The notes beneath the pieces are model-generated. The model was not told the origin of the DNA. It saw only the letters and a list, made by a program, of their open reading frames with translations, and did no database searches. The translations under genes and the position numbers were made by a program. Positions 20,884-60,461 of a stretch of DNA of 64,000 nt are shown here, one piece after another; position 1 is the stretch's first letter, and every line of letters begins with the position of its first letter. The DNA is from Monosiga brevicollis MX1 (lineage: Eukaryota; Opisthokonta; Choanoflagellata; Craspedida; Salpingoecidae), in the NCBI RefSeq assembly GCF_000002865.3, contig NW_001865044.1:127528-191527 (forward strand), given 5' to 3'.

Positions 20884-21312
20884 TCTTCTTTTTACGAAAT
20901 TTATGGGTGACAAAAAAAAATTGAGCCTTTCGCAAGGCCATTGAATTTCGCATACGTGGAAGCAAGTTAATCAAACATCAAGCTGGGGATTTACCACACG
21001 TTCAACACCCCTGTCACATTCGCGACGGATACCTTTCAAGCTTCGACGTTGACACCCCCTCTACACACTGAAACGTCTTGCAATCTCGCCCCTCTGGCTC
21101 GCCTTTTGCCTCGTCCTTCAAAGGAAGTCCTTATCCTCCAGGACGATACCCACACACCCACAAACACACACCCACACACACCCACACACAACAACAACAC
21201 AAGGTCAGCTGTGGACGTGGACGCACAAGATCTTGCCAACACCATGCAAGCTGAGAGAGAAAATGGCACGGGTCGTGTGTTTCTTTTGTTTCTGCTCTCA
21301 CTCTCTGAATCT

Positions 21313-21400
21313 CATATTCTTCTCTCTCTCTCTCTCTGTCTCTCTCTCTCTCTCTCTGTCTCTCTCTGTCTCTCTCTCTCTCTCTCTCTGTCTTTCTCTG

Positions 21401-21437
<37 letters not shown>

Positions 21438-21494
21438 GTCTCTCTCTCAAACTCTCTCTCTCTGTCTCTCTCTCTCTCTCTGTCTCTCTCTCTC
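21313..21494. repeat. Imperfect CT repeat leading into a gap
   Basis: CTCTGT-interrupted CT repeat running directly into the following N block, which suggests the gap is caused by the repeat. Confidence 0.93.
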
Positions 21495-22039
21495 NNNNNN
21501 NNNNNNNNNNNNNNNNNNNNNNNNNNNNNNNNNNNNNNNNNNNNNNNNNNNNNNNNNNNNNNNNNNNNNNNNNNNNNNNNNNNNNNNNNNNNNNNNNNNN
21601 NNNNNNNNNNNNNNNNNNNNNNNNNNNNNNNNNNNNNNNNNNNNNNNNNNNNNNNNNNNNNNNNNNNNNNNNNNNNNNNNNNNNNNNNNNNNNNNNNNNN
21701 NNNNNNNNNNNNNNNNNNNNNNNNNNNNNNNNNNNNNNNNNNNNNNNNNNNNNNNNNNNNNNNNNNNNNNNNNNNNNNNNNNNNNNNNNNNNNNNNNNNN
21801 NNNNNNNNNNNNNNNNNNNNNNNNNNNNNNNNNNNNNNNNNNNNNNNNNNNNNNNNNNNNNNNNNNNNNNNNNNNNNNNNNNNNNNNNNNNNNNNNNNNN
21901 NNNNNNNNNNNNNNNNNNNNNNNNNNNNNNNNNNNNNNNNNNNNNNNNNNNNNNNNNNNNNNNNNNNNNNNNNNNNNNNNNNNNNNNNNNNNNNNNNNNN
22001 NNNNNNNNNNNNNNNNNNNNNNNNNNNNNNNNNNNNNNN
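21495..22039. other. Assembly gap (545 N)
   Basis: Run of unknown bases between a CT microsatellite and unique sequence. Its length may be an estimate from the assembler. Confidence 0.99.
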
Positions 22040-22351
22040 TAGCCGCTTGCATGGTGATTGGCACTCCCCTCGGCCCCCTCTCCCCCGCGTCTACACGCAT
22101 CACAAAGTACACACATACATGTTCGAGCAAACCCAGCCGCACACTCGACCAGGCTCCTCCCACATCCCAGTCGCAAGCACCCCCCTTGAGCTGTTTTTCT
22201 TCTGGATGTTCCCTTGACGACTGACCGGTGTGTCTCGCTGTTTGCCAACCTAGACGTGTCAGGAAGCAGCTGGCCAGCCGCAAGGTCATCCTCGCCCATA
22301 CACACGCACACTCGCACGCACGCACGCAAGCTGCAAAGCCCACCGGTCAAC

Positions 22352-42148: not shown

Positions 42149-45100
42149 TCAAAGGTTAAAGAGGCAGAAGTAATCAGCCAAACGCTCCGCTGCCTCCGCA
42201 GCAGAACCACACAGCTCGCTGTTGGCCATATATCGGAACTCGTCAGTTGGATCACCATCTTGAAGGACAAAGAGCCGATCCAGTGCTGGCGCCACGTGGC
42301 CAACATGCTCTCCATACAACACAACCATTTCGACGCCGTCCCTTGCCATGGCCTCGCACGCTTTTAGAAAATCATTTTGGGCTTTGTACAACACTTTTTG
42401 GACCTTGGCGGCTCGGTCGCTTGCTAAAATTTTTTCAAGCACGTTGACAGGGCCACACAGGCCCACAATATTGTTGCGAGGAGCAAGCGTCAAGTGTGCC
42501 AGCAGCGCCAAGTGGTCAGAGCCTGTTGCTTGCGCGTGCAGGTGGTGCGACTTAACTCGGCACCACAACGCACGAGAGCACAAAATGTAGGCCTTGCTGT
42601 GTTGCGACGTGGACTGGAGCGACTCAGTGTTCAGGTCCACGTATCCCTTCGTTTGGGTCAGGTACTCGTAGACAATGTGAGAAGGAATGTCCAGTCTGTC
42701 CGAGGGGCTCGGGGCTTCAGACGTCCGCTCGGGCGATGCATTGAAGCTAACGCAGAGAATGTGCGGCAGGCATGTCAGCTGCAGCTCATGGCAGTCCGCT
42801 GTTAGGGGCCTCTTAAAGTAACCTCGTAAGCATTTCCTCAGTGATTCGACTAGCTGTAGTCGATCACAATCGGTTTGACTTGTCAGGTGAGTCGAAACTA
42901 CTGCTAAATCACAGGATTCAAACCCCTTGACAACGCGAAGCACGGTGTTTTGGCAGCCAGTGTTGTCATGAAACACCTCGGTCTGCTCACTGGCATGACG
43001 GGCGAGTATGGCGTTTCCAATTGTAGCGTTTGGGTAGGCCTTAAAGAAGGGGAATGTATCTCCCACTTGCGCAGCCAACGCGTCCAATGCAGTGTGGTCT
43101 GAGGACGAGCTCGGCCGCAAGGGCTCACGCCCAGCGGGCAGAGGGTGCTTGACTTCTTGCAGGCAAATCACGTCTGGTGCAAACAAGGAAACGCATTTGT
43201 TGACCTCATGATTTAATAGTCGCGATCGGGACGGATCAAAAAATTCGTGAACGTTTAGTGTCATAACACGCAGGTCGCTGCGGCACGTGTTGCTTGTTGT
43301 CACTTGAAGTGATGGGAGCGCCCGTTTGGCAGCGGATATGGCCTCATCCCGGAGGTTTTGAGGGTACTGCGGGATGGTTCCCTCCAGTTCGCGTCCGATG
43401 ATCTCTATCTGTTTGAGCAGTTGCGAGTGTTCCAGGCGAAGGTTGATGGCGTAGATAGAGTCGGAGAAGGGGTTTGAGTCGTCGCGCCGGCCACCGATCA
43501 AGTACACGGTGTGACCAACCAAAGTGGCGGTCCAGCCTGTCAAAGGGGGAAGTCGTGATGACTGATCCAGATCGGCATGTGGCTTCCACTCGCTCCACAC
43601 CAACTCATCACCATTCGATGCAGCGTTGTGCTGACTTTCACAGAGTTGCAACTGGATAATGTGAGAATGACGACGGAGAGCCTGACACCTCGACCCGAAA
43701 GTACGCGTGACATGCTGGCGAGCTCCATGCTTGCCTTTGGAGCGTGGAACATCGCCTCCAAACACAATGAGTCGACGGTCAGCTTCATCCATGACTGCCG
43801 CAAAGCCAACAAGCGAAGCTCGACCAGTCTCGCCGAGGTTAACGTGGTTGGTGATATGCATTGTGACTGTTGGGTCTTGTCCCAATGGAACGCGCTGAAT
43901 GCGGGACAGTGGCTGATGAAACCCACCTACCACTAGCAGCGCATCCCCTTGTACGAGCACCCAGTGTCGGTGCACCGCCTTCAGTAGAGAGCCTTGCTTT
44001 GTCCAGCGCACTTTTGGACCTTGTCCGTCTAGTTCAGCGCGCCACACGTCGTGAAGGCTGCTTTTCGCGCAGCCCCCAATCACATAGAGACATCCTTTAT
44101 GCAAGGTAGCAGTGTGCCGGCACCGGGGGTCAGGCCACTTCTCACGGTTTGCAGGCCGCTGAGATATCCATTTGTCATCGTGAATGTTGTAGAATAGCAA
44201 GTCGTTGAAAGAAACTGGGCAGCTAGAGCCACCAAAGCCACCAAAGACGACAATGAAATCGTTCCAGTGCGTGGCCGTGAACGAGTAGCGCCCTTTCACT
44301 GGCATGCCACGCATAGGCTTCCAATCACTCACGCCGTCGCTGCTCAGTTCAGCCCTATAGACGGAGCGCAATGCTCCTTTTTTGCTGTTGCCACCGAGCA
44401 AGTACAGGTACTTGTGCTTGGGGAGGGCCACATACACAACTGCGTGGCCATCACAGGCAACTGGAGCTGACCGCCGCAGTTTTTGAAAGGGCAGGCGCAT
44501 CACAAGCTCACTATTTCGCATTTTAAGAGCCTCAACAATGCAGCCTGTGTCTTCTGGAAGGACAGAGTTCACAAATTGACCGATTTCATCCATCAAGGTA
44601 TGCTTCGTGTCGGGACCACCATACATCTGCATGAATGAGTCAAAGCCCGTCACGCTGGCGTACAGCCAGGCGTGTTCGTTTTTCAAGCTTTTTAAGAGGA
44701 GGAGTGGGTTTTCTTTCAAAGGGCGATTGTGCTTGCCGTCCTTGGCCAGATCTTCGGCCAACGTGCCATCAAGTGCCCTATCTACCGCAAGGCGGACCCA
44801 ATGCCCGCTACTTGGGCGCCAGCCGTAGACTGCCTCATGTTCACTCGCAAGCCGATCAAACGTGTCAGCATCGCCGGCACAATACCAGTTGCCGAGGAGC
44901 ACATCCACCGGCAGCAGGGCCAGGGCGGCACTGCGCAGCCGTTCAGAAGGCGATGGGTCGGGTTGGAACTCTAAATTTTCCATCAATAGCAGCGACCAGC
45001 TCACTGGTGCTGATGGAGCAGGCAGCCCGTTGACTGGCTCCCATTCAAAGCTCAGTCGGTACAGCACGCAGCGTGGAGCGTGCTCACTGCATAGCATACG

Positions 45101-45760
45101 ATATGCACCAAAGCAGGCGAATTCATGATAGCTCTGCTGAACCAACTCTTCACCAAACAGCACTTGCTTTTCCAAGTCAACGTTTGGCCGTGGCGTCCGA
45201 GCAAGCCATGTCGTCCCATTGACAATCAGTTTGAAAAATCGTTTGTTTGCCGTGCTGACGCGCTCGGCGCCGAGCGAGGTGCGATCATTCAGGGCTGCCA
45301 TGAGACTGTCCTCAGATGGAAAGTCTGCTCGGTCTTTGTCCACAAACTGGGGCACGAAGACACTCTCACAATTTGTGCAATTAGTTCGTAGGAGTTCGAC
45401 CTTTTTGAAAGGGATCTCGCAGCTCACGAGCACCTCGTCGGAGCGCCTCGATCGCTGAATGGCCTGCTTGTTTGACAGGTGCTGATCTTGGAAGTACCCC
45501 TTGTCCAACCGACACACGCGATCACTGGGCAGGCCAGCCTCTTGCACCACTGCGATATCGGACAGGCAGCCACCGAAAGCAAGAGCCACGTTCAAGTCGG
45601 CCGTAAATGACAACACGTGTGTAGAGCCGTTGAGCACATGGTCTTGAATTGTGTCATTTTCGAGAGGGCCTTCAAGAGGATCTGCGGCGCAGAGATACCC
45701 CCTTTTGTCGGCCTCTTGCCACTCCTTGGGGCGGAGAACCCGAAATAGAGTTTGGGGCAT
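42149..45760 (-). CDS. Intronless multidomain protein: ART-like, kinase-like, Kelch, EEP
   Basis: One uninterrupted frame of about 1,203 codons. Start is the ATG at 45760 (MPQTLFRVLRPKEW); codons above it are non-ATG. By position: 1-130, an ADP-ribosyltransferase-like pattern (FRVLRP, then HVLSFTADLNVALAF, then SDEVLVSCEI, i.e. R, SFT, E). About 165-430, resembling HipA/effector kinases: FKLIVNGTTWLART, VLFGEELVQQ, LLPVDVLLGNW and HWVRLAVDRAL; the usual GNWD Asp is Tyr. About 440-780, Kelch units: YLYLLGGN, FIVVFGGFGG, CLYVIGGCA, ALLVVGGF, RLIVFGGD, TVYLIGGR. About 830-1095, EEP fold: RVMTLNV, VICLQEVK, VVSTHL, GSDHLALLAHL, but the usual GDFN reads VSFN. 1095-1203, unrecognised, ending LADYFCLFNL. 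Domain calls are by eye. Substrates and role are unknown. It is the only long intronless gene here besides the small bZIP. Confidence 0.8.
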   Translation of the reverse strand: MPQTLFRVLRPKEWQEADKRGYLCAADPLEGPLENDTIQDHVLNGSTHVLSFTADLNVALAFGGCLSDIAVVQEAGLPSDRVCRLDKGYFQDQHLSNKQAIQRSRRSDEVLVSCEIPFKKVELLRTNCTNCESVFVPQFVDKDRADFPSEDSLMAALNDRTSLGAERVSTANKRFFKLIVNGTTWLARTPRPNVDLEKQVLFGEELVQQSYHEFACFGAYRMLCSEHAPRCVLYRLSFEWEPVNGLPAPSAPVSWSLLLMENLEFQPDPSPSERLRSAALALLPVDVLLGNWYCAGDADTFDRLASEHEAVYGWRPSSGHWVRLAVDRALDGTLAEDLAKDGKHNRPLKENPLLLLKSLKNEHAWLYASVTGFDSFMQMYGGPDTKHTLMDEIGQFVNSVLPEDTGCIVEALKMRNSELVMRLPFQKLRRSAPVACDGHAVVYVALPKHKYLYLLGGNSKKGALRSVYRAELSSDGVSDWKPMRGMPVKGRYSFTATHWNDFIVVFGGFGGSSCPVSFNDLLFYNIHDDKWISQRPANREKWPDPRCRHTATLHKGCLYVIGGCAKSSLHDVWRAELDGQGPKVRWTKQGSLLKAVHRHWVLVQGDALLVVGGFHQPLSRIQRVPLGQDPTVTMHITNHVNLGETGRASLVGFAAVMDEADRRLIVFGGDVPRSKGKHGARQHVTRTFGSRCQALRRHSHIIQLQLCESQHNAASNGDELVWSEWKPHADLDQSSRLPPLTGWTATLVGHTVYLIGGRRDDSNPFSDSIYAINLRLEHSQLLKQIEIIGRELEGTIPQYPQNLRDEAISAAKRALPSLQVTTSNTCRSDLRVMTLNVHEFFDPSRSRLLNHEVNKCVSLFAPDVICLQEVKHPLPAGREPLRPSSSSDHTALDALAAQVGDTFPFFKAYPNATIGNAILARHASEQTEVFHDNTGCQNTVLRVVKGFESCDLAVVSTHLTSQTDCDRLQLVESLRKCLRGYFKRPLTADCHELQLTCLPHILCVSFNASPERTSEAPSPSDRLDIPSHIVYEYLTQTKGYVDLNTESLQSTSQHSKAYILCSRALWCRVKSHHLHAQATGSDHLALLAHLTLAPRNNIVGLCGPVNVLEKILASDRAAKVQKVLYKAQNDFLKACEAMARDGVEMVVLYGEHVGHVAPALDRLFVLQDGDPTDEFRYMANSELCGSAAEAAERLADYFCLFNL

Positions 45761-46637: not shown

Positions 46638-48030
46638 CTATAGCATGGTTTCATCCGTGCCTACGTCCAAGTACAGGCCGACATGTCCCGAAATCCTGGG
46701 GGCGGGTATGTCGAGGCGCTCCAAAGCCGCCCAATGCTATTCAGCAGGTGCCAGAGTAATGTCAGCGCAAAATAATAAATCAACAAGGCCGGCTTCCCCA
46801 TGCCGAATATACGTACCTGAGGCAGCGTGCGACGACGCAACACGATAAAGTTGGGTCGTAGTTCGCCATTGACGGTCAGGCACGACTGAATCAAGGCATC
46901 AATCAAGGGAGGACAGCTTTTTGGGCTGGCCAAGACCGGTTCGTTCTCAGGCACCCGACCAGCATAGGCTGCCAACAGGCGTTCCACGACTTGCTGATCG
47001 TCCAAATCATTAAAAGGCATCTAGCGCGAAAGGTGAAAGGTGCTTCAGCAACAGCGCTGTCACAGCCAGATGGTCGATGGTGTTGTCCAGCACAAGCCTT
47101 CAGCCAAGTGACCAGGATGGGCACTCTAGTTGGCATAACCAGCACACACACCTCGCCAGCGCTCCACATTTCGCAGAGTAAGCAGCCATAGCTCCACACA
47201 TCTGATTCGGAGGTGAACTTTCGATCCACAATGGTACTGGGCGCCTGTGCCGAGACACAACAAATAAGCACAAGCACGCAGTGCCCAGAGACCACACCAG
47301 GCGACCGTGATCAAGCAACATGCAGTCAGACACCTACCATCCAGCGCACAGGCATCGGGCGCGATGTTTTAATGCGATAGTAGCACTCCTCTGATTCCGT
47401 GCCAATCGCCATTGTGCGGGACAACCCGTAGTCAGCCACTTTAGCATTCAGCGCACGGCCAATCAGCACGTTTCTCGCCGCCTATGGTTGTGTTCGCCGC
47501 AAAGTTGAGGGTTGCCAACACCGCAACTTGTACCAACTCTCCTTCGACGACTTACCAAATCGCGGTGGACAATGCCCAAGCGCGCGAGCTCAGCCATACC
47601 ACTGGCCACCTGCAAGAATGCAGACGCCCGCAAAACCACCTGAGTGATCATACAAGCTCACATGCCATATCTGCATCTCGCAATGGTCAACACTCAATGG
47701 TGCGAGGCCAGTGAAACCACGATGCCACCTCACTTCAGACCGTCAATAACTAACCTGGTGTGCAATGTAAATGAGGTCTGTTTGGCTCACTGACCGGCCT
47801 CGATCTTCGAGCCAGCCCTCAAGGGAGCCGCCTGGCATAAACTCGAGAATCATCGCGAGGTGACCGTCAGTCGTCTGACTCGTGTGCAGCAAACCCACTA
47901 GATTGGGGTGATGCAGCTTCAACATCATTGTCACTTCGGACATGAAATCCTCGCGCAAACTGGCGTCACGAAGTGTTTTGACGGCCACTTGTAGCGTGCT
48001 CCCATACTGATTGGCCATGCTCATTAGCTG

Positions 48031-48093
<63 letters not shown>

Positions 48094-51000
48094 AAAAAAA
48101 AAAAAAAAAAGAACAAGGGAAAAAGAACGAGCAACAAAAACAAGATTAGGAAAAAAAAAGCGATGGGCTCACGAGGTAGCGCCACGAGCCGGGAATCAGG
48201 CACGTACATTGACCTCTCCAAATTCGCCCTCGCCGAGCTTGCGCACAAATGTCAGCTGCGCAAATGGGATGTCTAATTGACGCTCTCGGTAAGTCGATAA
48301 AATCGCGAGAATCACGTCGCTGCAACGTTTGACGCGCCCCCGTTTCATAACCTCTGCAAGTTGAGGCAAACCCGACTCGCTCAGCGCCGGAAGTTGGGCG
48401 CAGAAATCTATTATAAATTGTCCTGCTGCTCGCACCACCGCCACTTCGTCGGTGCTCTCAGCACTGGAAGGCTGCAAGGGGCAGTTGCGTAGCCTCACGC
48501 GCTCTTCCTCATCCAAATAACAGTTGTCAACTGTAAAGTCAGTAAAGTACAAGTGCCGAGAAGCCAAATACTCCAGTCCCACCATCACCTCCTCAAGCCA
48601 TCGCTGTCCGGTTTCCACAGGCACTGATGCATTGAGGTGAGCCGTTAAGGGGGTAACATAGCTATCAACTAAAACCAGTTCTTCTCCATTTGATGATTCC
48701 GCCACGGCACGAAGCATAGGTAGGGCAATGCAGTCCAGCTTGCTGCGCAAAGCCAGCTATATGGTTCAAGTCATCGTGAGCAAAGCCACGGGGGTACAAC
48801 AGCGGTACCAACTGTAAGCCGTTTGCGCCCAAACGCACCACGCGTTGAATGTCTTCAGAACAGCCTCGCGCAATACATTCCACCTAGGGCCGGGGAACGA
48901 TCGAATAAGATGCAGTTCGAGTGCATATTCGTCTGGTTGCGAGATATCCTACCAGCTGTCCATTCAAGTTGAAAATGTTCTCATGACCAGGCTCCGACAC
49001 GAGCCTAACATCAGACCAAAACACGAGGCGTCTCAGTCACTTGTCATGCTATTGAGCGGGGACTCTCGTGGCAGTAACACACCGATCGACGGCTATGCGG
49101 ACAAGTTGAGTCGGCACCATCGTGGCATCCACCGCCATATAAGCATTCTCCTCTTGCAAAGCAGCCACGAGCGCACTATGGAAAGCGTAACATATCAGAA
49201 TTAACGCACATGCGTGCGGTGACCGATACAGTTGTGAGATAAGCAATCCAGTCAAGCATCTCAATGTCAATTTCGTGTCGTACCCGAAACGTGGTCGTGA
49301 CCGGGGTTGCGTTCTGAGGCAAGCTTCAATCAAGCGCTGTGCAAGCGGATCCTCCACGACGGGGAGCGCTGGCAGCGCATTTGTGACGCTGGCGGACACG
49401 AATTGACGTTCAGGCATTTCTTTGTATGGCATCTGACCGTTGTTATATACCTGCCAGAAAAACCTTTAGCGTCGAAAGTACCAAGTCAGACACAGTGCAA
49501 GCGAGTCGATGCGCTCACATGACAAAGCACACCCAATTCTTTTTTGGAACGAGAAAAAAAATAAAGGCGTGCCAAAGCCACTGACCGTCCAAATGCAAAG
49601 ACATCCGACTTGAAGCTAAAATTGCCATCCTGCCAAACTTCTGGACTCCAGAATCGGCGATCAGGTGCCAGCTGCGAGGCAGCTGCGTTCTTGGTCATGT
49701 ACTCTTCCGTAAAATACACGTCTCGAGACAGGCCTATTCACATGTCCACTGATTGAATTTCCACGCTTCTGGTAGTACGCCATTGCCATCGTGTAAACTC
49801 TTTCTTGGCTGGGAATGTCACGCACCAAATCCAGCTAATCGGACGTCAGTGATGTCACTGCACGCATAGATGCTGTGTGCCCCCAAATTGCGATGCACAA
49901 TCCCCATGCTCTCCAAAAAAGAGCAAGCCGAAGCCACCTAGAAGTTCAGTTCCGGCTCGGCCTCGAGATCAGCGGTGCAAGGAGTGGAATGTCCAAGCAC
50001 CCCTGGCTTACGCACCTTGAGGCATATTTCTCTGCCTTGAGCTTGAGTCACTTTGTATTGCGCCAGCGCAACATCCAGTGGCCCCTGTTGAATTTCCTCA
50101 TATAGCTGGAAATGTGATGCCAATCAAACGACAGTGAGTACATAGGTCTCACCTAGTTGCCCGTCCACACACGCAGGCCAGCATACCAAAATTTGAACGC
50201 GGTCGTCCGATGCAAGGTGGTGCACCTTGAGCACATTAGCATGTTGCTGCAAGCAGAGTAAAAGACGTGCTTCTACAAGCGCACGCTCGACGTTTGGCTG
50301 CTCTTCGGTTGTTGGAAAAGCCGGCAGGTATACGCCTGAATAGCATTTGCGCGTCGAGCTCAAGGTCATGAATCCTTGATCAAATGGCAAGGTTGCAAAA
50401 ATACTTGCTTGTCGCTTCAAGGTCACTTCTCGGGCGCTCACAGTCATAGCGGCAAGTTGTGACGTCTAAGTGAAGAGTCAAGCACATGCACGAGAAACAG
50501 TCGAGTCGGATCAACATTGTGCAGAAATAACACAGCCCTCCCTCCAGAAAAAAAAAAATTTAACAAAATTAACAAAACGCAAAACAAAACCCCCGGCCCA
50601 CCAAGCCAGTGTACAGCCGCATGATCGATGGAGGACGTGACTCACGAGCTCTGTGCTTTTTTGAGCCACACGGGCATACTGTCGGGCAAAAACAGCGGCT
50701 GAAGCCTCTAGGGCCCACACCGGGCGGTCGAGCTTGACGCGACGAGAACACATAAAAATTATGATGCCCAGCACCAGCAAGCCCAAGCCTGCGCCCATGG
50801 CACTGGCGATCACAACCATGCCAGAACTACTTCTTGAAACTAGGGAAGCTTCAGTCGTCGCGATGGTTGTAAGCTCTGCCGTCGTGGCGATGGTCGTTCT
50901 TGCATCACAATTGATACTGTTGGAGGAGTTGATGGGGGCCGGAAACGCAAAGCTAGTGGTGTCATCTTCAGCTGTCAGCTGCAGCTCGTCTCGATAGAGG

Positions 51001-52229
51001 GTCGTGTTGATTTGTAGATCTCCATCGGAGGACTCGAGGCTAGGGGCCCAATAGATCCGAGTTGAATCATTCGTAATTGCCATGGTGTCCAACGTCGCGG
51101 TGGTGTACCGTACTCGGAAGAACTCATAACAATCATAAGCCACAAAAGTTGGATCAGGTGGGCCTAGCTGGGCATGCCCTCGTTGGTAGCGCAAGCGAAG
51201 TTCACCATCACTACAACCGCCAAGAAAATCAATGTTAGACGTTTCCCAGAGCTGGCAGCATTCAAACTCATCCCATCCATTATCACAATCTTGAACGCCG
51301 TCGCAGTACTGGAAATTGGTAATGGTATTGCTGTTATCCGAGCAAGTCAGGTTCAGAGTCTCCTCATACACCACGCATGATGTGGCCATATTGTCATTCC
51401 AGGATGGATTTGTGGTCAAGATGGGTAGTGGTGTGGGTGCCGTCACCGGCAGCAGAGCAGTGCAGTCGGTCAAAGCCTCAAGCCCACACGCCTCCGGAAG
51501 CCAAATTGCGCTGCAGTTTGGGGACATGGCAGAAATCAGCAAATCCGAGCGAATTTCCTGTATGGGATTAAAGCGAACATCCAAAGTATCCAGCTGATTC
51601 TCAAACGGTAGATGGATGGCATACAATCGCGAAAGCAAGTTGTGGCTGAGATTGAGATATTTCAGGCTGTAAAGAGATTGAGCAGCCAGCTCATGTACGT
51701 ATTCAAGTTTGTTGTTGCTCAGGTCCAAACGTTCGAGTTGCTGAAACATGACCACGTTGTCACGGTGACACTTATGCAGGTTATGATTGCGAATCACGAG
51801 CTGCTTCAGATCACTGGGTGCGCCACCGCGTGGCATTATTTTAAACCGATTGGCGGTGTTAGCGCCATCACATATCAGGCTGGGACGCCCGTCCTCCGCA
51901 TCAAACGTAACCTCACAGCCGGCATTGGCGTACACCTCGTTGAGTTGTCCAAACACACGGTTGAGCAAAAAATAGCCTTTGGGGTGACAATCATAGTGGG
52001 TCCACCAGAACTTGCTCAGGCAATCGCTGCCTTCATTGGGATTTAAGATGCAAGTAGAGTTGATACTTGCGAGCTTGATGCCGTTCTGATCCTGCAGGTC
52101 TGAACAATCAAAGCATTCTGGCGTGGTGTAAACATTTTTTGCAACGAGAAGATGCACCGGGCACCCAGGAGCATCTGCAGCCAACGCCACAGTTAGAGCA
52201 GCAAGAATCCAAAAGGTCACACGGTACAT
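46638..52229 (-). CDS. Receptor tyrosine kinase A: LRR-LDLa ectodomain, pseudokinase(s), tyrosine kinase
   Basis: Sixteen exons: 52229-50646, 50465-50187, 50105-50016, 49937-49826, 49733-49586, 49463-49284, 49175-49083, 49004-48953, 48883-48809, 48756-48208, 48027-47755, 47609-47556, 47481-47338, 47244-47152, 47020-46817, 46736-46638. All phases close; 1,342 aa. Signal peptide (VTFWILAALTVALAADA); LRRs (LERLDLSNNKLEYV, LKYLNLSHNLLSRL); an LDLa-like CDGVQDCDNGWDEFEC; membrane span about 470-494. First kinase-like domain: VHRNLGAHS and AGFGLSRDVYF, with HRD changed to HRN and DFG to GFG after Ala, so probably inactive. A second segment keeps only fragments (GLEYLASRHLYFTDFTVDN). The third is intact: LGEGEFGEV, VAVKTL, IVHRDL-AARN, ADYG (DFG variant), PVRWM, DVWSYGCLLCEMWS. 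AARN and PVRW mark it as a tyrosine kinase. Exons 2-4 match gene B in length, as do several later ones. Ligand unknown. Confidence 0.9.
48031..48088. repeat. GA microsatellite in a receptor kinase A intron
   Basis: GA run followed by an A-run at about 48094-48110, in the intron before the VAVK exon. On the coding strand this is a CT/T polypyrimidine tract next to the acceptor. Confidence 0.9.
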
Positions 52230-52704
52230 GGCTCGGACAACCAACCAGCGCGCCTCCGAAATAATATCGTGCACGCCCCTCAGCCGTTCGCGCCTCGTTC
52301 TCCCCACCACAAATCTCAACGTGACCTCGTGAGAACACCCACACGATCACATCAATCCTTCAGATCAACAATAACCTCAGCAGGCACAGACACGCGCGAT
52401 GCCGTCTCAAGTCATACATAGGTCTGATGCTGCCATCGACTGCCAAAACATTGCGCTCACGTGCAAAAATCACAACAAAATGATGAACAACAAACAAAGA
52501 AAAAAAAATGATGAAGGAAGAAAAACGTTGTCAAAAAAGAAAAGTTAGGGAGGCTGAGTTTAATTTAAGATGCTCGGAAGTAAACAACGCGATGGCTGCG
52601 CCCAGACAGTCCAAGTCCTATCGACAGTAAAAAGCTCGGGCTCATGTCTTGTCGGAAGTATGACCAAGTACAATGTCACTTGAATTCGGTGTATGGACGG
52701 AACA
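52230..52704. promoter_or_regulatory. Spacer between receptor kinase genes B and A
   Basis: 475 bp between gene B's stop and gene A's ATG, head to tail on the minus strand. Gene A's promoter and gene B's 3' end must share it. An A-rich patch lies at 52490-52510. No gene seen. Confidence 0.5.
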
Positions 52705-55700: not shown

Positions 55701-58700
55701 GCAAGAGAAGACCCAAGGAGAGTTTGGCCAGAACACTTGCCGAGCGCCTTCAACATGTTGCATGATCCGAGTGTCGAAATCGGCACCGGCAAACTCGGCC
55801 ACGCCCGACTCGTCGCCCTCGACGGCACTGGCCCAGGCGGCCGCCAGCGTCCTGAACACGCCCGCAAGAGAAGGTGAATGTGCATGAGGCTCGAATCATG
55901 TCAAGATAACAAACAAGGGGAGGAAGGAAAAAGGAAGGAGGGAGGGAGGGAGAGAGAGAGAGAGAGAGGAAAAGGACAAAGAAACGGGGGAAGATCAAAA
56001 GGGCAAAATCAACGCCACAGGAAACCAAAGGCTACGCACGCAAAGTTGGGGCGACTCTCGGGCTTGATACGAAGGCACTGTAGGATGAGGCGACGCGCGT
56101 GCTCGCTGGGAATGGCACGAACAGAGGGTGGCGTGCCCTGTTGGACGTGGAGGGCAATGGACTGGAGCGACATGCCGGGGTAGGGCAGTTGACCTTTGTT
56201 ATAGACTTGCCAGCAGAGCCTGTTGGGTGTGGAGCCGGGTGGAGCCAGGTGGAGCCGGGTGGTAGTGGAGGGTGCACAAGACAAGGCAGAAGGGGCAGGT
56301 TAGTAAGCGGGGGAGGCGATGGGCCAAACGGGATTAACGAGTGAGGGCCTTCGGGGAGCTGAGATGACGATGCACGTCACTGGGGATGGAAGACTTACTG
56401 GCCATAGGCGTAGACGTCAGACTTTGTACTAAAGATCTGGTCACTCCACACCTCCGCAGACCAGAATCGCTTGGCTAGTTGCTTTGAAAACTCATCGTGA
56501 GTGTCTGAGCTGCCCATGGCTGTTGCTGATGCCATCGTGGCTTCATTGACAATCGTACGAGCCACATACTCTTGTGACAAGTATACATCCCTCGCAGTCG
56601 CTGTGAGGCGAGCCAAAGCAATCGTGAGAGAAAAAAAAAAAAAATAGATAAAAAAAGAGTAGAAGTCACGCCAATCATCGGTCGAGGTAGTCATGTCATC
56701 GAAGGAAAGCGTTTGACGCACTGATATTGGCAAGGCGGACTTCGGTAATATCTCCCACACAAAAAACCGAATGGGCACCCAAGTTCCGATGAACAATGCC
56801 GAGACTGTCCAGAAACGAACAGGCTTCAGCGACCTGCCAAACCACGCTGTCGCTTAGTACAGATAATCATTGATCACACTAAGCAAAGAGCAGGTGCAGT
56901 TACGTACCCGTTGGCAGATAAGGGCAGATTCTTTCGGGTTTGGAGCATCCAACCGCAAAACATCGGCAAGTTGGGTGTAATTGCTCATATCGTAGATCTA
57001 TTGACAAATATTTTCATGAGCTCTGAGGTGTTTGCATCGCATACCACGTTGACGAATCACAATATTGACGAAACGCAAGCAAACATACCAAAATGAAACC
57101 GTCTTTCATGGTTGAATAGCCAGCAAAGTTGAGAATGTGGCGGTGTTGATGAAGACAGTTGAGCAAATGCGCCTCCACCACCAAATCAAGCGCCGCTTCC
57201 CAAGCACCCGGCTGCAGGATCTGCTGATTTCCTATCCAGATGGCGTGTCGCGATTGCCGGTCGTGCTGTAGGGTGCACGTCGCGTGGCTGAAGTGACCAT
57301 GGTTGAGTTGATCAGATATTTTCCACTGCATGACTTCCACCGCTCCAAGCAGCTCCATACGAGCAAACTACATGTCAGTGCCATATGCATCGGTCAGCCC
57401 AAAGCCAAGAAGCCCGATTTCAGCGCATTGGTGGTCGCGCGAAAAATGTAGCAAGAGGCCTCGCACAAAGTGGTCAAACCTGATTTGCATCATCACGCGC
57501 CGCTTTGTTGTAGAGGCTGCAGAAGATGTCTCGGCCCTTGACAAGCAGGCTACTAATGGGTTTCTATGGTCGGCCAAGCAGGACAGCATTTTCGGTTATC
57601 TTGGGCTTGTCACTTGCGCAGTCACGCAGTGTTGTCTTCGTAGGTTTACGCGCAGAATAGTATGCCATTATAGAAAAAATAATATCAAGAGTTGACGCAC
57701 CATCTCTATTGCAGAGCCATCTATACGGCGTCTCCTGTTGCGAAAAGCAAATACAGCCACGATGGCCCCAATCACGATCATCGTACCGACTACCGCGCCC
57801 ACGATAGGCAAGATATCATCGCGGTGGGACCGGGAGGGGATACCCTCTGGCAAAGGTGCCGTGGTTAGAGTGTTGCCGACTCGCGTAGTCTGCTGTGTTT
57901 GATTGGCGTAGATGATGATGTCATCGCCGAGATCAAATTCGCCAAGCATGACGTGTACATAGCGCTCTAAATCCACTGTCAAATGAGCCAGAACGTCAAC
58001 GGCTTCTTCGATTTGAATGTTCCACACGAGGCGGACGTAGTCTTTGGATACATTGACCATGGGATCAAATCCAGATACTTGCAGCTGGCGATAGTGGGAG
58101 TTGACACACGTGCCGGCAACGGCATCCAAGTTGGCAGCTCGCATTATAGCGCGGCCACGCAGGAAGAAGAATTTGAGGTAGTTGTTCACGCAAGCTCCAA
58201 TCAAAGCTGCTTCGGTGTAAATGGCGGGTGGTTCACACATGAACTCGTCACTCCCATCCGCACAATGTCGATAGCCATCGCAGAACTGATGAGTCTCAAA
58301 GGTGACGCTGCGGTCGTTCAAGCACGGTGCAGGTGCCCGATTCGCGTTCAAAATTCGGCAGCTAGAATTTGTTGCACCCTGCACCTCGATCGGCCCATAG
58401 CAACGGTTCTGCAGGGTCCATTGACAGGTTTCTGACTGAGGCAATTTTAGTATGTATGCTGGGCGCTGACGGCAGTCGCGTGGGAAGCAGGCGTCAAAAA
58501 TGCTGATGTCCATCTTGGTGACGGGGTTGTTGGTGAGGTCAAGCATCTGGAGGAGGCCATAGGATGGAAGCATCGTACCGTCCAAGGCGGCAAAATCATT
58601 GTTCGACATGTTGAGGTGTGTCAATCGGACCAGCGGCTCAAACACAAAATTTCCAAGGCGTACAAGCGTGTTGTGGGCAAGGTTTAGGTACCGCAGCTTG

Positions 58701-59182
58701 GCGTAGCCGTGAACATTGTGATGAGCCACGTAGGAAATATTGTGATGCGTAGCCTCGATCCCGACAAGGTTGGACGGTGCTCCACCATCAGCCAAGCGAT
58801 CAAGCATGTTCTCTTGTCCCGGTACGCCGCGGCAAATGAGCTCAGGCTCGTCGTCAAAGCTTCCTCGAATTGTGCAGCCCGCTTGCTCGAAACGGGATGT
58901 CATATTGCCTGCTTCATCCAATACAAAAGTACTGTCTTCGATGCAACGAAAGTGGGTCCAGAACATGTAGCGATAGCTTTTGTCAAAGCTGCAAACAGTG
59001 CCGACAGGCACGGAATCTTCCCAATATCGGCCACAGTCGGTTTTCAAGGGCCCAAATTCTACAGGAATGAGGTGATCGCGAAAACCCAAGAGCCGAATAG
59101 GGCAGTCGGACGCGGCATGGTGCCAGAGGCCGAAAAGAACGGCAGCCAGAAGCGGCGTCACCACAGCCTTGCCTTTCCCCAT
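52705..59182 (-). CDS. Receptor tyrosine kinase B: LRR-LDLa ectodomain, pseudokinase(s), tyrosine kinase
   Basis: Fifteen exons: 59182-57701, 57367-57089, 56997-56908, 56833-56722, 56600-56399, 56219-56040, 55851-55741, 55589-55520, 55372-54689, 54413-54144, 54041-53988, 53738-53595, 53413-53321, 53064-52861, 52779-52705. Phases close; 1,349 aa. Signal peptide (VVTPLLAAVLFGLWHHAAS), LRRs (LRYLNLAHNTLVRL, LTHLNMSNNDF, LQMLDLTNNP), LDLa (FCDGYRHCADGSDEFMC), membrane span about 457-480, then a basic stop-transfer. First kinase-like domain has VHRNLGAHS and LANIT where DFG should be. The middle segment has VEYLASRRVLLEDLRVGDFR and a Gly run. The last kinase is intact: LGQGEFGQV, VAVKLL, VHRDL-AARN, VADFG, DAYYRIK (possible activation-loop tyrosines), PLRWM. 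The intron after 55741 has a GC donor. The last exon is poorly supported beyond phase. Confidence 0.88.
53812..53900. repeat. GAGAAA tandem repeat in a receptor kinase B intron
   Basis: Tandem GAGAAA units between the HRDL exon and the AARN exon. The same intron in gene C has a shorter version at about 63378-63426. Confidence 0.9.
54537..54626. repeat. CTTCAT hexamer tandem repeat
   Basis: About 15 near-perfect hexamers in the intron between the G-loop exon and the VAVK exon of gene B. It yields an apparent Ile/Phe reading frame on the plus strand that is not a gene. Confidence 0.93.
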
Positions 59183-60461
59183 TCTTGATTCTATATCATG
59201 CCATTTCGAATCGTCAGAGGTGGGTTAAAGCGGCGAACAAGGCTTGCTGGTTTCCATGTTAAAAAAAAAGGCGGGGGCTATCCGCCCCGACCCAGCGAGA
59301 CACAAAATGATCGAGGCAAAGGGGGAGAAGCACGAAAAGCAAAGACCATGAAGAATAAGCTTGGAGGTGTTTCAGGATGTACCTGGTAGCTGGGAGGAAG
59401 GCCCAAGGCCGCCGGTCACGTGGGGCAAGCGCTTGGAAAACCGAAATTGATTCACGCCCACTTGAGCTTATACCGCAGCACATAAGGGCACAACCGGACA
59501 AGGAGCCTGGGCTTGTTGTTCTCTGACGCCCAGAGTATATTTTTCTCACACATCAGACAGCCATTCTTGCTTGCCATCCAAAAGCACAACACGACACGCA
59601 GGGCCATGAGCCAGAGGGACTCTGCAACGTACGGAAGGTGCTCGGTCGGGTTTCGCCCATCAGAGAGAGAGAGAGAGAGAGAGAAGTGAGAGAGAGTTTG
59701 AGAGAGTTTGAGAGCGTTTGAGAGAGTTTGAGAGAGTTGAGAGAGTTTGAGAGAGAGAGAGCTGAAGCGAGCAGAGAGAGAGAGAGAGCTGAAGCGAGCA
59801 GAGAGAGAGAGAGAAAATGCTGATGCACATGTGATGAAATGGCCCACTCATCTCTAAATTCGAACCAACACAAACTCCAGACTTTTCTACGATAACTTGT
59901 TAAAGTGTTTGTTTGATATGGACATCATCTTCAACATTTGATACAAAAACGCATCAGGAGTGGGCCAAAGTGTCGATCGTGAGAAAATGTCATACTTTTC
60001 GCTATGGAAGCGTCGCTTGTTGCGGAGACACTTGGCCCCCAAAGCGTTCATGTCTAGGAGGCGCTATGATGCTGTCGAGAAGGCCGCAATTCGCCGGGCA
60101 GCGGTGAAGAAATTCTGGGCCGTGTTTGCGGAGGTGTTGTTGCGTTTGGCGTGATTCGATTCACCCCGATCAGCATGATAGGGTTTGTCATTTCGCTTGG
60201 GTGATCGCAGCACATTAGACATCTCGACTATCGCGGGTCAATTTCGAGACCATACGACCGAGGGTTAGAGCCGCTTTTCGCGCAGATCCCGATTGTCCGC
60301 CACGCATCGCTGCCTTTGTCGATGGAACCGGATATCCGATCTTCAGGCCCGGTGGTCGCAACCGTAACCAGCGGTTGAGCTACGACGGCAATGCAGCTTT
60401 GTTGTGTTGGTTTCAGCTTTGGGCTGAATCTCATGGATCAATGCGACTCGTTTGGTTTTAC
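59183..60461. other. Gene B upstream region with GA repeats
   Basis: Gene B's promoter should be near 59183-59600. GA repeats with interspersed GAGAGAGTTT units occupy about 59661-59815. A plus-strand frame of 54 codons at 59988-60154 is very basic and has no partner exons I can find. Nothing here is confidently coding. Confidence 0.4.
59661..59816. repeat. GA/GAGAGAGTTT tandem repeats
   Basis: Three GA blocks separated by repeated GAGAGAGTTTGA-type and GAGCTGAAGCGAGCA units, about 0.5 kb upstream of gene B. Confidence 0.9.

What the first reader, a model, noticed from the sequence alone, without database searches (positions are those of the whole stretch)
42149..45760. A single-exon fusion of ART-like, effector-kinase-like, Kelch and EEP domains
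Seen directly: a 3.6-kb open frame with R/SFT/E-type elements at the N-terminus, a FGEEL...LLGNW block, six Kelch-type GG units and EEP motifs with SDH near the end. Established: ADP-ribosyltransferases and HipA-like kinases occur as effector or toxin modules in bacteria; Kelch repeats are binding propellers; EEP proteins cleave phosphoesters. Inference: this combines a nucleotide-modifying module, a recognition propeller and a nuclease-like module in one chain, which could be a previously undescribed defence or nucleic-acid-processing protein. I know of no protein with this order.
Basis: partly seen in the sequence, partly recalled or inferred. Interest (0 to 1): 0.85.

Follow-up and report, generated by a model that had tools for sequence, protein, structure and literature searches.

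The report
ART–pseudokinase–Kelch–nuclease fusion protein family
A protist gene joins an apparently intact ADP-ribosylating module, a kinase module that looks dead and resembles one from bacterial viruses, a binding propeller and a nuclease-like module; a distant relative has the same four-part order, so this appears to be a real and conserved kind of protein.

Summary
In detail: one open frame of 1203 codons on the MINUS strand, 45760-42149, with one match in its genome. The order is conserved: ART-like, kinase-like and Kelch blocks recur in relatives, and P0004 (1167 aa, 30% identity) also carries the C-terminal EEP.

Kelch: six blades. ART-like block: R7, S51, T53, E109 kept in 10/10, 10/11, 11/11, 11/11, weak DUF7587 hits in some relatives; ART fold not shown. 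Kinase-like block: homologous to a module of phage head/ADP-ribosyltransferase proteins (profile score 72; 60 shuffles, maximum 22); catalytic residues 9/9 in phages are mostly lost in the eukaryotic family, so probably a pseudokinase. EEP: P0004 keeps seven of seven aligned ExoIII positions, the window five, so here it probably only binds.

Best reading: an ADP-ribosyltransferase aimed by a propeller, with a dead kinase and, here, a crippled nuclease module. All activities are inferred; defence is untested.

The parts
42149..45760 (-). Whole open reading frame, 1203 aa (P0002), ATG to TGA
   Evidence: one match in own genome
45311..45760 (-). ART-like N-terminal block, residues 1-150; R7 (45740-45742), S51/T53 (45602-45610), E109 (45434-45436)
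   Evidence: columns R 10/10, S 10/11, T 11/11, E 11/11; DUF7587 PF24494 hits below cut-off in some relatives
44465..45283 (-). Kinase-like block, residues 160-432, predicted pseudokinase (b3 position R188, NW-x position Y293, RxD position A325)
   Evidence: profile homology to phage kinase-like module; residue table
43433..44470 (-). Six-blade Kelch propeller, residues 431-776
   Evidence: PF24681 3e-29; six GG units
42482..43279 (-). EEP (exonuclease III-like) block, residues 828-1093; GDxN aspartate replaced by S1005 (42746-42748), xDY aspartate missing before Y1058, SDH kept at 1081-1083
   Evidence: PF03372 below cut-off; alignment with P0004 and E. coli ExoIII; EEP of P0004 aligned at 6e-19 pairwise; codons
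42152..42475 (-). C-terminal tail of unknown nature, residues 1096-1203, not present in P0004
   Evidence: no Pfam hit; not aligned

Best explanation
This is an intracellular, multi-module ADP-ribosyltransferase-type protein of a protist, a member of a small conserved, apparently eukaryotic family. The N-terminal R/SxT/E block transfers ADP-ribose from NAD+ to a target. The kinase-like block, inherited from (or sharing an ancestor with) a module that phages fuse to ADP-ribosyltransferases, has lost its ATP/Mg and catalytic residues and acts as a pseudokinase that positions or regulates the ART. The six-blade Kelch propeller picks the target. The exonuclease III-like EEP block was a working phosphodiesterase in the family (residues intact in P0004) but in this copy has lost two catalytic aspartates and most likely only binds, possibly nucleic acid. 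Shown: order, conservation, kinase-module homology, residue losses. Inferred: ART activity, pseudokinase role, Kelch targeting, EEP activity in P0004 and binding here.
For: Same four-module order in P0004, and the first three modules in P0003, P0005, P0007, P0008, P0009; EEPs of P0002 and P0004 homologous. ART residues nearly invariant over 11 sequences; weak DUF7587 hits (P0007 9.3e-5; P0012 1.3e-4, P0009 0.0065, P0010 0.038; 3 of 7 members, best 3.7e-5). Kinase block against a 9-phage profile: probability 96.6, score 72.0, 206 columns; 60 column shuffles maximum 22.2; ART block as negative control 11.8; against 88 phage sequences score 82.6. Catalytic residues phage/eukaryote: b3 K 9/9 v 2/10; NWD aspartate 9/9 v 1/10; DN aspartate 9/9 v 5/10 and asparagine 9/9 v 2/10; RxD aspartate 9/9 v 0/10; N172, D286, N291, R323 all 9/9 and 10/10. 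In phages the same chain holds an ART domain: PF01129 1.8e-7 in L025, phrog_3895 in L027 and L031. EEP residues: window 5 of 7 ExoIII active-site positions, P0004 7 of 7.
Against: No Pfam or PDB hit to a named ART or kinase for the window protein or its N-terminal half, and no PHROG hit; none for the family profile in the PDB. The ART block is not detectably similar to the phage ARTs (score 11.6; 27 of 60 shuffles as high). The kinase block and the phage module are not significantly similar to single sequences of E. coli HipA or an AFK-like protein, so that the phage module is a kinase rests on its motifs. Without the divergent P0008 the kinase-phage score falls to 48 (the shuffles were run with P0008 included). 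D327, kept in 9/10, could stand in for the metal aspartate if the alignment is shifted by two; helix-C glutamate is kept in 7/10. Two of five phage proteins scanned had no PHROG hit (L029, L033). No structure model or experiment.
Confidence: 0.5

Rival explanations
1. The N-terminal block is a DUF7587-type domain that is not an active ART: it binds NAD/ADP-ribose or a protein only, and the R/SxT/E residues are structural.
For: The only named similarity is DUF7587, a domain of unknown function; no paper in the held library has that name; no similarity to phage ARTs; no [EQ]xE pair (S107-D108-E109).
Against: R, SxT and E in the expected order and nearly invariant across 11 divergent sequences; the kinase-like partner occurs in one chain with ARTs in phages.
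Confidence: 0.2
2. The kinase-like block is still an enzyme, using D286, N291 and D327 or another chemistry (as known for some pseudokinases such as SidJ and SelO; recalled).
For: D286, N291 10/10, D327 9/10 and RPN 11/11 are strictly kept; D286-x4-N291 mimics the kinase D-x4-N spacing (recalled).
Against: D286 and N291 are also invariant in the 9 phage versions, which have the separate NWD aspartate, so they look structural; Lys, NWD, DN asparagine and RxD are mostly or wholly lost.
Confidence: 0.2
3. It is a relative of actin-fragmin kinase (AFK): kinase followed by Kelch, acting on actin.
For: AFK has kinase then Kelch (recalled); the phage module aligns with an AFK-like protein over helix C to the metal loop in the right order; Dictyostelium has four AFK homologues, only one with all putative catalytic residues (PMC1420674, passages).
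Against: Scores not above the shuffles' maximum (the score, 18.6, lies below the 20.7's shuffles); PF09192 not hit by the 11 members scanned; a separate AFK-like gene lies elsewhere in this genome.
Confidence: 0.08
4. The EEP and tail are decaying or still active, so the protein here is either drifting or a nuclease.
For: EEP synonymous codon score is below that of the other blocks (-0.018 v +0.055 to +0.067); two aspartates lost.
Against: Frame fully open through the 427 codons after the Kelch block; the other five active-site residues kept; in-frame codon score of the EEP still above its five other frames.
Confidence: 0.15
5. Two neighbouring genes read as one frame.
For: No transcript data.
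Against: P0004 has the same join with a homologous EEP; the two lie on different sides of supported branches.
Confidence: 0.02

Closest known systems
Phage head/MuF ADP-ribosyltransferase proteins with a kinase-like module (for example Pseudomonas phage Jeremy, Aeromonas phage ST4, Morganella phage Mecenats66, IMG/VR L025)
   Same: Homologous kinase-like module in one chain with an ADP-ribosyltransferase
   Different: In the five phage proteins examined the ART is C-terminal, with STS (four) or CTS (one) and ExE, the kinase residues are intact, a MuF-like hit (25.9 bits, cut-off 29.6) was seen in L025, and no Kelch or EEP hit in L025, the one scanned against Pfam
DUF7587 (PF24494)
   Same: Weak hits over residues ~27-149 in some relatives
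   Different: The hits with scores shown are below the family cut-off of 27 bits; no hit for the window protein itself
Exonuclease III / APE1 branch of the EEP superfamily (xth, PF03372)
   Same: P0004: xth 1.8e-8, below that model's cut-off, PF03372 1.1e-7, seven of seven aligned ExoIII positions kept
   Different: Fused to ART-like, kinase-like and Kelch blocks; window copy lacks two aspartates and has an extra tail; P0004's PDB hits are weak, 7e-4 (uncharacterized EEP) to 0.065 (AP endonucleases)
Kelch propellers of the KLHDC2/LZTR1 type (PF24681, PF24981)
   Same: Six blades, E 3e-29
   Different: No BTB or other ubiquitin-ligase module hit in the chain
Actin-fragmin kinase of Physarum (PF09192)
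   Same: Atypical kinase followed by Kelch (recalled)
   Different: No sequence match; no ART or EEP recalled for AFK

Membership tests
ADP-ribosyltransferase, R-S-E type | R, [ST]x[ST] and E in this order | tested here: met
   R7 10/10, S51 10/11, T53 11/11, E109 11/11
ADP-ribosyltransferase, R-S-E type | [EQ]xE pair before the catalytic E (arginine and some other clades; recalled) | tested here: not met
   position -2 is S107 in 11/11
ADP-ribosyltransferase, R-S-E type | ART fold | not testable with these tools
ADP-ribosyltransferase, R-S-E type | profile similarity to known ARTs | tested here: inconclusive
   DUF7587 only, in some relatives and below cut-off; none to five phage ARTs
Phage ART-associated kinase-like module | profile homology over the module | tested here: met
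   score 72, 206 columns, 60 shuffles maximum 22
Phage ART-associated kinase-like module | catalytic residues K, NWD, DN, RxDxGG | tested here: not met
   K 2/10, NWD aspartate 1/10, DN: D 5/10 and N 2/10, RxD aspartate 0/10 in eukaryotic members; window has R, Y, T-F and A
HipA kinase | profile similarity to HipA | tested here: inconclusive
   single E. coli HipA sequence; not above shuffles for the eukaryotic block or the phage module
Actin-fragmin kinase | PF09192 match | tested here: not met
   no hit in the 11 members scanned
Kelch propeller | repeated hhhGG blades | tested here: met
   six, PF24681 3e-29
EEP / exonuclease III | seven active-site positions aligned to ExoIII N7, E34, D151, N153, D229, D258, H259 (numbers recalled) | tested here: not met
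   window 5 of 7, P0004 7 of 7
EEP / exonuclease III | PF03372 match over cut-off | tested here: inconclusive
   window 19.0 bits (whole protein) or 20.8 (piece), below 24.5; P0004 32.3 bits, above
Anti-phage defence system | match to a known defence protein model | tested here: not met
   PADLOC 0 of 4 proteins at E <= 0.1

The most novel reading that the evidence does not exclude
The family is a eukaryotic 'mark-and-cut' machine built from phage-type parts: the ART marks a nucleic-acid (or nucleic-acid-bound) target chosen by the Kelch propeller, and the intact EEP of relatives such as P0004 cleaves at or near the mark, while the former kinase serves as regulator; the window's copy has become a mark-only version.
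Probability: 0.12. Interest if true: 0.88.

Novelty: new variant of a known kind. Interest (0 to 1): 0.6.

Why it matters
It shows a conserved protein architecture in a protist that pairs an ADP-ribosyltransferase-like block with a kinase-like module that I found otherwise only in phages, where the two are also paired. That suggests a long-lasting partnership between the two modules and a possible route from phage effector parts to cellular machinery. The natural series (kinase residues intact in phages, mostly lost in the eukaryotic family; EEP residues intact in P0004, crippled here) makes it testable which module does the work.

Tried and rejected
Two-gene artefact: rejected, P0004 has the same join. 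PDB hits of the window protein to T-cell receptor chains and others and of the family profile to three unrelated proteins at E 0.29 to 1.4: set aside as chance. AFK membership: not met. Viral or prokaryotic relatives: scans with A2 of viral and genome contigs confirmed none (24 and 55 pattern matches); the kinase-only scan of genome contigs confirmed none of 39 and of viral contigs 1 of 35, L025, which opened the phage lead. These scans need short exact patterns, so they are weak as proof of absence. The window's N-terminal half against phages and P0007's against plasmids by tblastn: no match at E <= 1. A phage-type kinase in the own genome: none found, not a proof of absence. DUF7587 search of the own genome rang nowhere, controls included, so it says nothing. 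Ten paper searches listed no paper that I could recognise as describing this architecture; listings were capped (for example 8 of 665, 8 of 14, 10 of 22). Of the papers, listings with the starts of abstracts were seen, and passages of eight were read. The ART regular expression over 79 phage loci (15 of 76 frames with a complete end) is strict and unvalidated.
Full report
Observation. The reported frame is real and lies on the minus strand, 45760 to 42149, 1203 aa from ATG. A random open frame of 1233 codons at the local composition has a probability near 10^-23. The window lies in a 39.5-Mb genome of 57 contigs, and searches with the whole protein, its C-terminal third and the relative P0007 each found only this one place (such counts are lower bounds). 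P0008 found this place and some Kelch-region stretches elsewhere.

Order and conservation. Protein searches found P0003 (832 aa), P0004 (1167), P0005 (973), P0006 (752), P0007 (834), P0008 (780) and P0009 (816), plus shorter P0010-P0012. They come from public sources without organism names; an intron suggested by P0006 (below) points to eukaryotes (inference). P0004 aligns over 88% of the window protein at 30% identity and is named by its source as an EEP-family hydrolase; its EEP aligns with the window's at 6e-19 in a pairwise comparison. P0003, P0005, P0007 and P0009 end close behind the Kelch block at about one homologous place; whether the EEP is missing or hidden behind an intron cannot be told without their DNA. 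P0006 carries an in-frame insert that looks like an unspliced intron. In a tree of 10 members (P0012 left out) the two EEP-bearing proteins lie on different sides of supported branches (long branches flagged), so the EEP was probably present in the family's ancestor, or was gained twice.

ART-like block. R7 is kept in 10 of 10 members that have this end, S51 in 10 of 11, T53 in 11 of 11, E109 in 11 of 11. Pfam gives no ART or DUF7587 hit for the window protein but weak hits to DUF7587 in relatives: P0007 9.3e-5, 3 of 7 members of A5 with best 3.7e-5, P0012 1.3e-4, P0009 0.0065, P0010 0.038, P0011 none; those with scores shown are below the cut-off. Residue -2 from the glutamate is serine in 11 of 11, so the [EQ]xE pair of arginine-type and related ARTs (recalled) is missing. 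A profile comparison with the C-terminal ARTs of five phage proteins shows no similarity (score 11.6, 27 of 60 shuffles as high). The ART assignment is therefore a motif-level inference.

Kinase-like block. Searches of Pfam, the PDB and PHROGs found no kinase. A kinase-only scan of viral contigs gave one confirmed locus, L025, an 883-aa phage protein with a Pfam ART domain (PF01129, 1.8e-7) and a Phage_Mu_F hit below cut-off, backed by PHROG head-morphogenesis hits. Its kinase-like region matches 19 phage records, four of them annotated as ADP-ribosyltransferase or toxin of that name. PHROG ART models match L027 and L031 of five proteins scanned; L033 and L029 had no hit, though L033 is annotated as ADP-ribosyltransferase and a separate gene with that name lies near L029's. 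Of nine phage proteins taken here, five were aligned at the C-terminus: four show STS, one CTS, and five of five an ExE. Profile comparison of the eukaryotic block with the nine phage modules: probability 96.6, score 72.0, 206 columns, against a maximum of 22.2 in 60 column shuffles and 11.8 for the ART block as a negative control; without the divergent P0008 the score is 48.0. With 88 phage sequences it is 82.6, and 48.7 without P0008. That the phage module is itself a kinase is inferred from its K, E, NWD, DN and RxDxGG pattern; comparison with single sequences of E. coli HipA and of an AFK-like protein was not above shuffles (scores with 88 sequences, 23.4 and 18.6, also lie below the shuffle maxima of 23.8 and 20.7).

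Loss of catalytic residues. In the joint alignment the nine phage modules keep b3 lysine, helix-C glutamate, the NWD aspartate, DN and the RxD aspartate in 9 of 9. In ten eukaryotic members the lysine is found in 2, helix-C glutamate in 7, the NWD aspartate in 1 (P0007), the DN aspartate in 5 and asparagine in 2, the RxD aspartate in 0. N172, D286, N291 and R323 are kept in 10 of 10. In 79 further phage loci the lysine motif is found in 77, NWD in 72, DN in 72 and RxDxGG in 71, by simple patterns. The window has R188, Y293, T300-F301 and A325. This is the pattern of a pseudokinase. Against this, D327 is kept in 9 of 10 and could serve if the alignment is moved by two residues.

Kelch and EEP. 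Six blades. The EEP is closest to the exonuclease III type in P0004 (NCBIfam xth 1.8e-8, below that model's cut-off; PDB hits weak). Aligned with E. coli ExoIII (ExoIII numbers recalled), P0004 keeps seven of seven active-site positions; the window keeps N836, E869, N1007, D1082 and H1083 but has S1005 for the GDxN aspartate and lacks the aspartate before Y1058. The changes span several bases at two places, so simple sequencing error is unlikely (inference). The tail 1096-1203 has no Pfam match.

Mechanism. Most likely: ADP-ribosylation of a target held by the propeller, tuned by a former kinase; the EEP in this copy binds rather than cuts. Each functional step is inference. The pairing of an ART-type block with this kinase module both in phages and in this family is the strongest hint that the two work together. 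Phage ARTs fused to MuF and packaged into the head are described (PMC9503650, passages), as are polyvalent proteins with ARTs and a distinct group of kinases (PMC5512222, passages); the passages I saw do not describe this kinase module or this family.

Verdict.

Noticed in passing
   Followed up: partly
G000:C56:1008773-1009485: An AFK-like kinase (PF09192, two exon pieces over the cut-off) lies elsewhere in the same genome.
   Followed up: partly
window 46906-47295 (-): A stretch matching part of a protein kinase domain (PK_Tyr_Ser-Thr 3.6e-7) just upstream of the gene, same strand.
   Followed up: no
window 50514-52346 (-) and 57671-59224 (-): Two single-frame proteins with leucine-rich repeats; whether they are paralogues was not tested.
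   Followed up: no
window, within 21298-22224: Run of N (assembly gap or withheld stretch), seen as X in the translations, inside simple repeats.
   Followed up: no
P0008, kinase-like block: The most divergent relative has the kinase-like block closest to the phage form (mean identity to phages 22% against 18% for the family) and may be an intermediate.
   Followed up: partly
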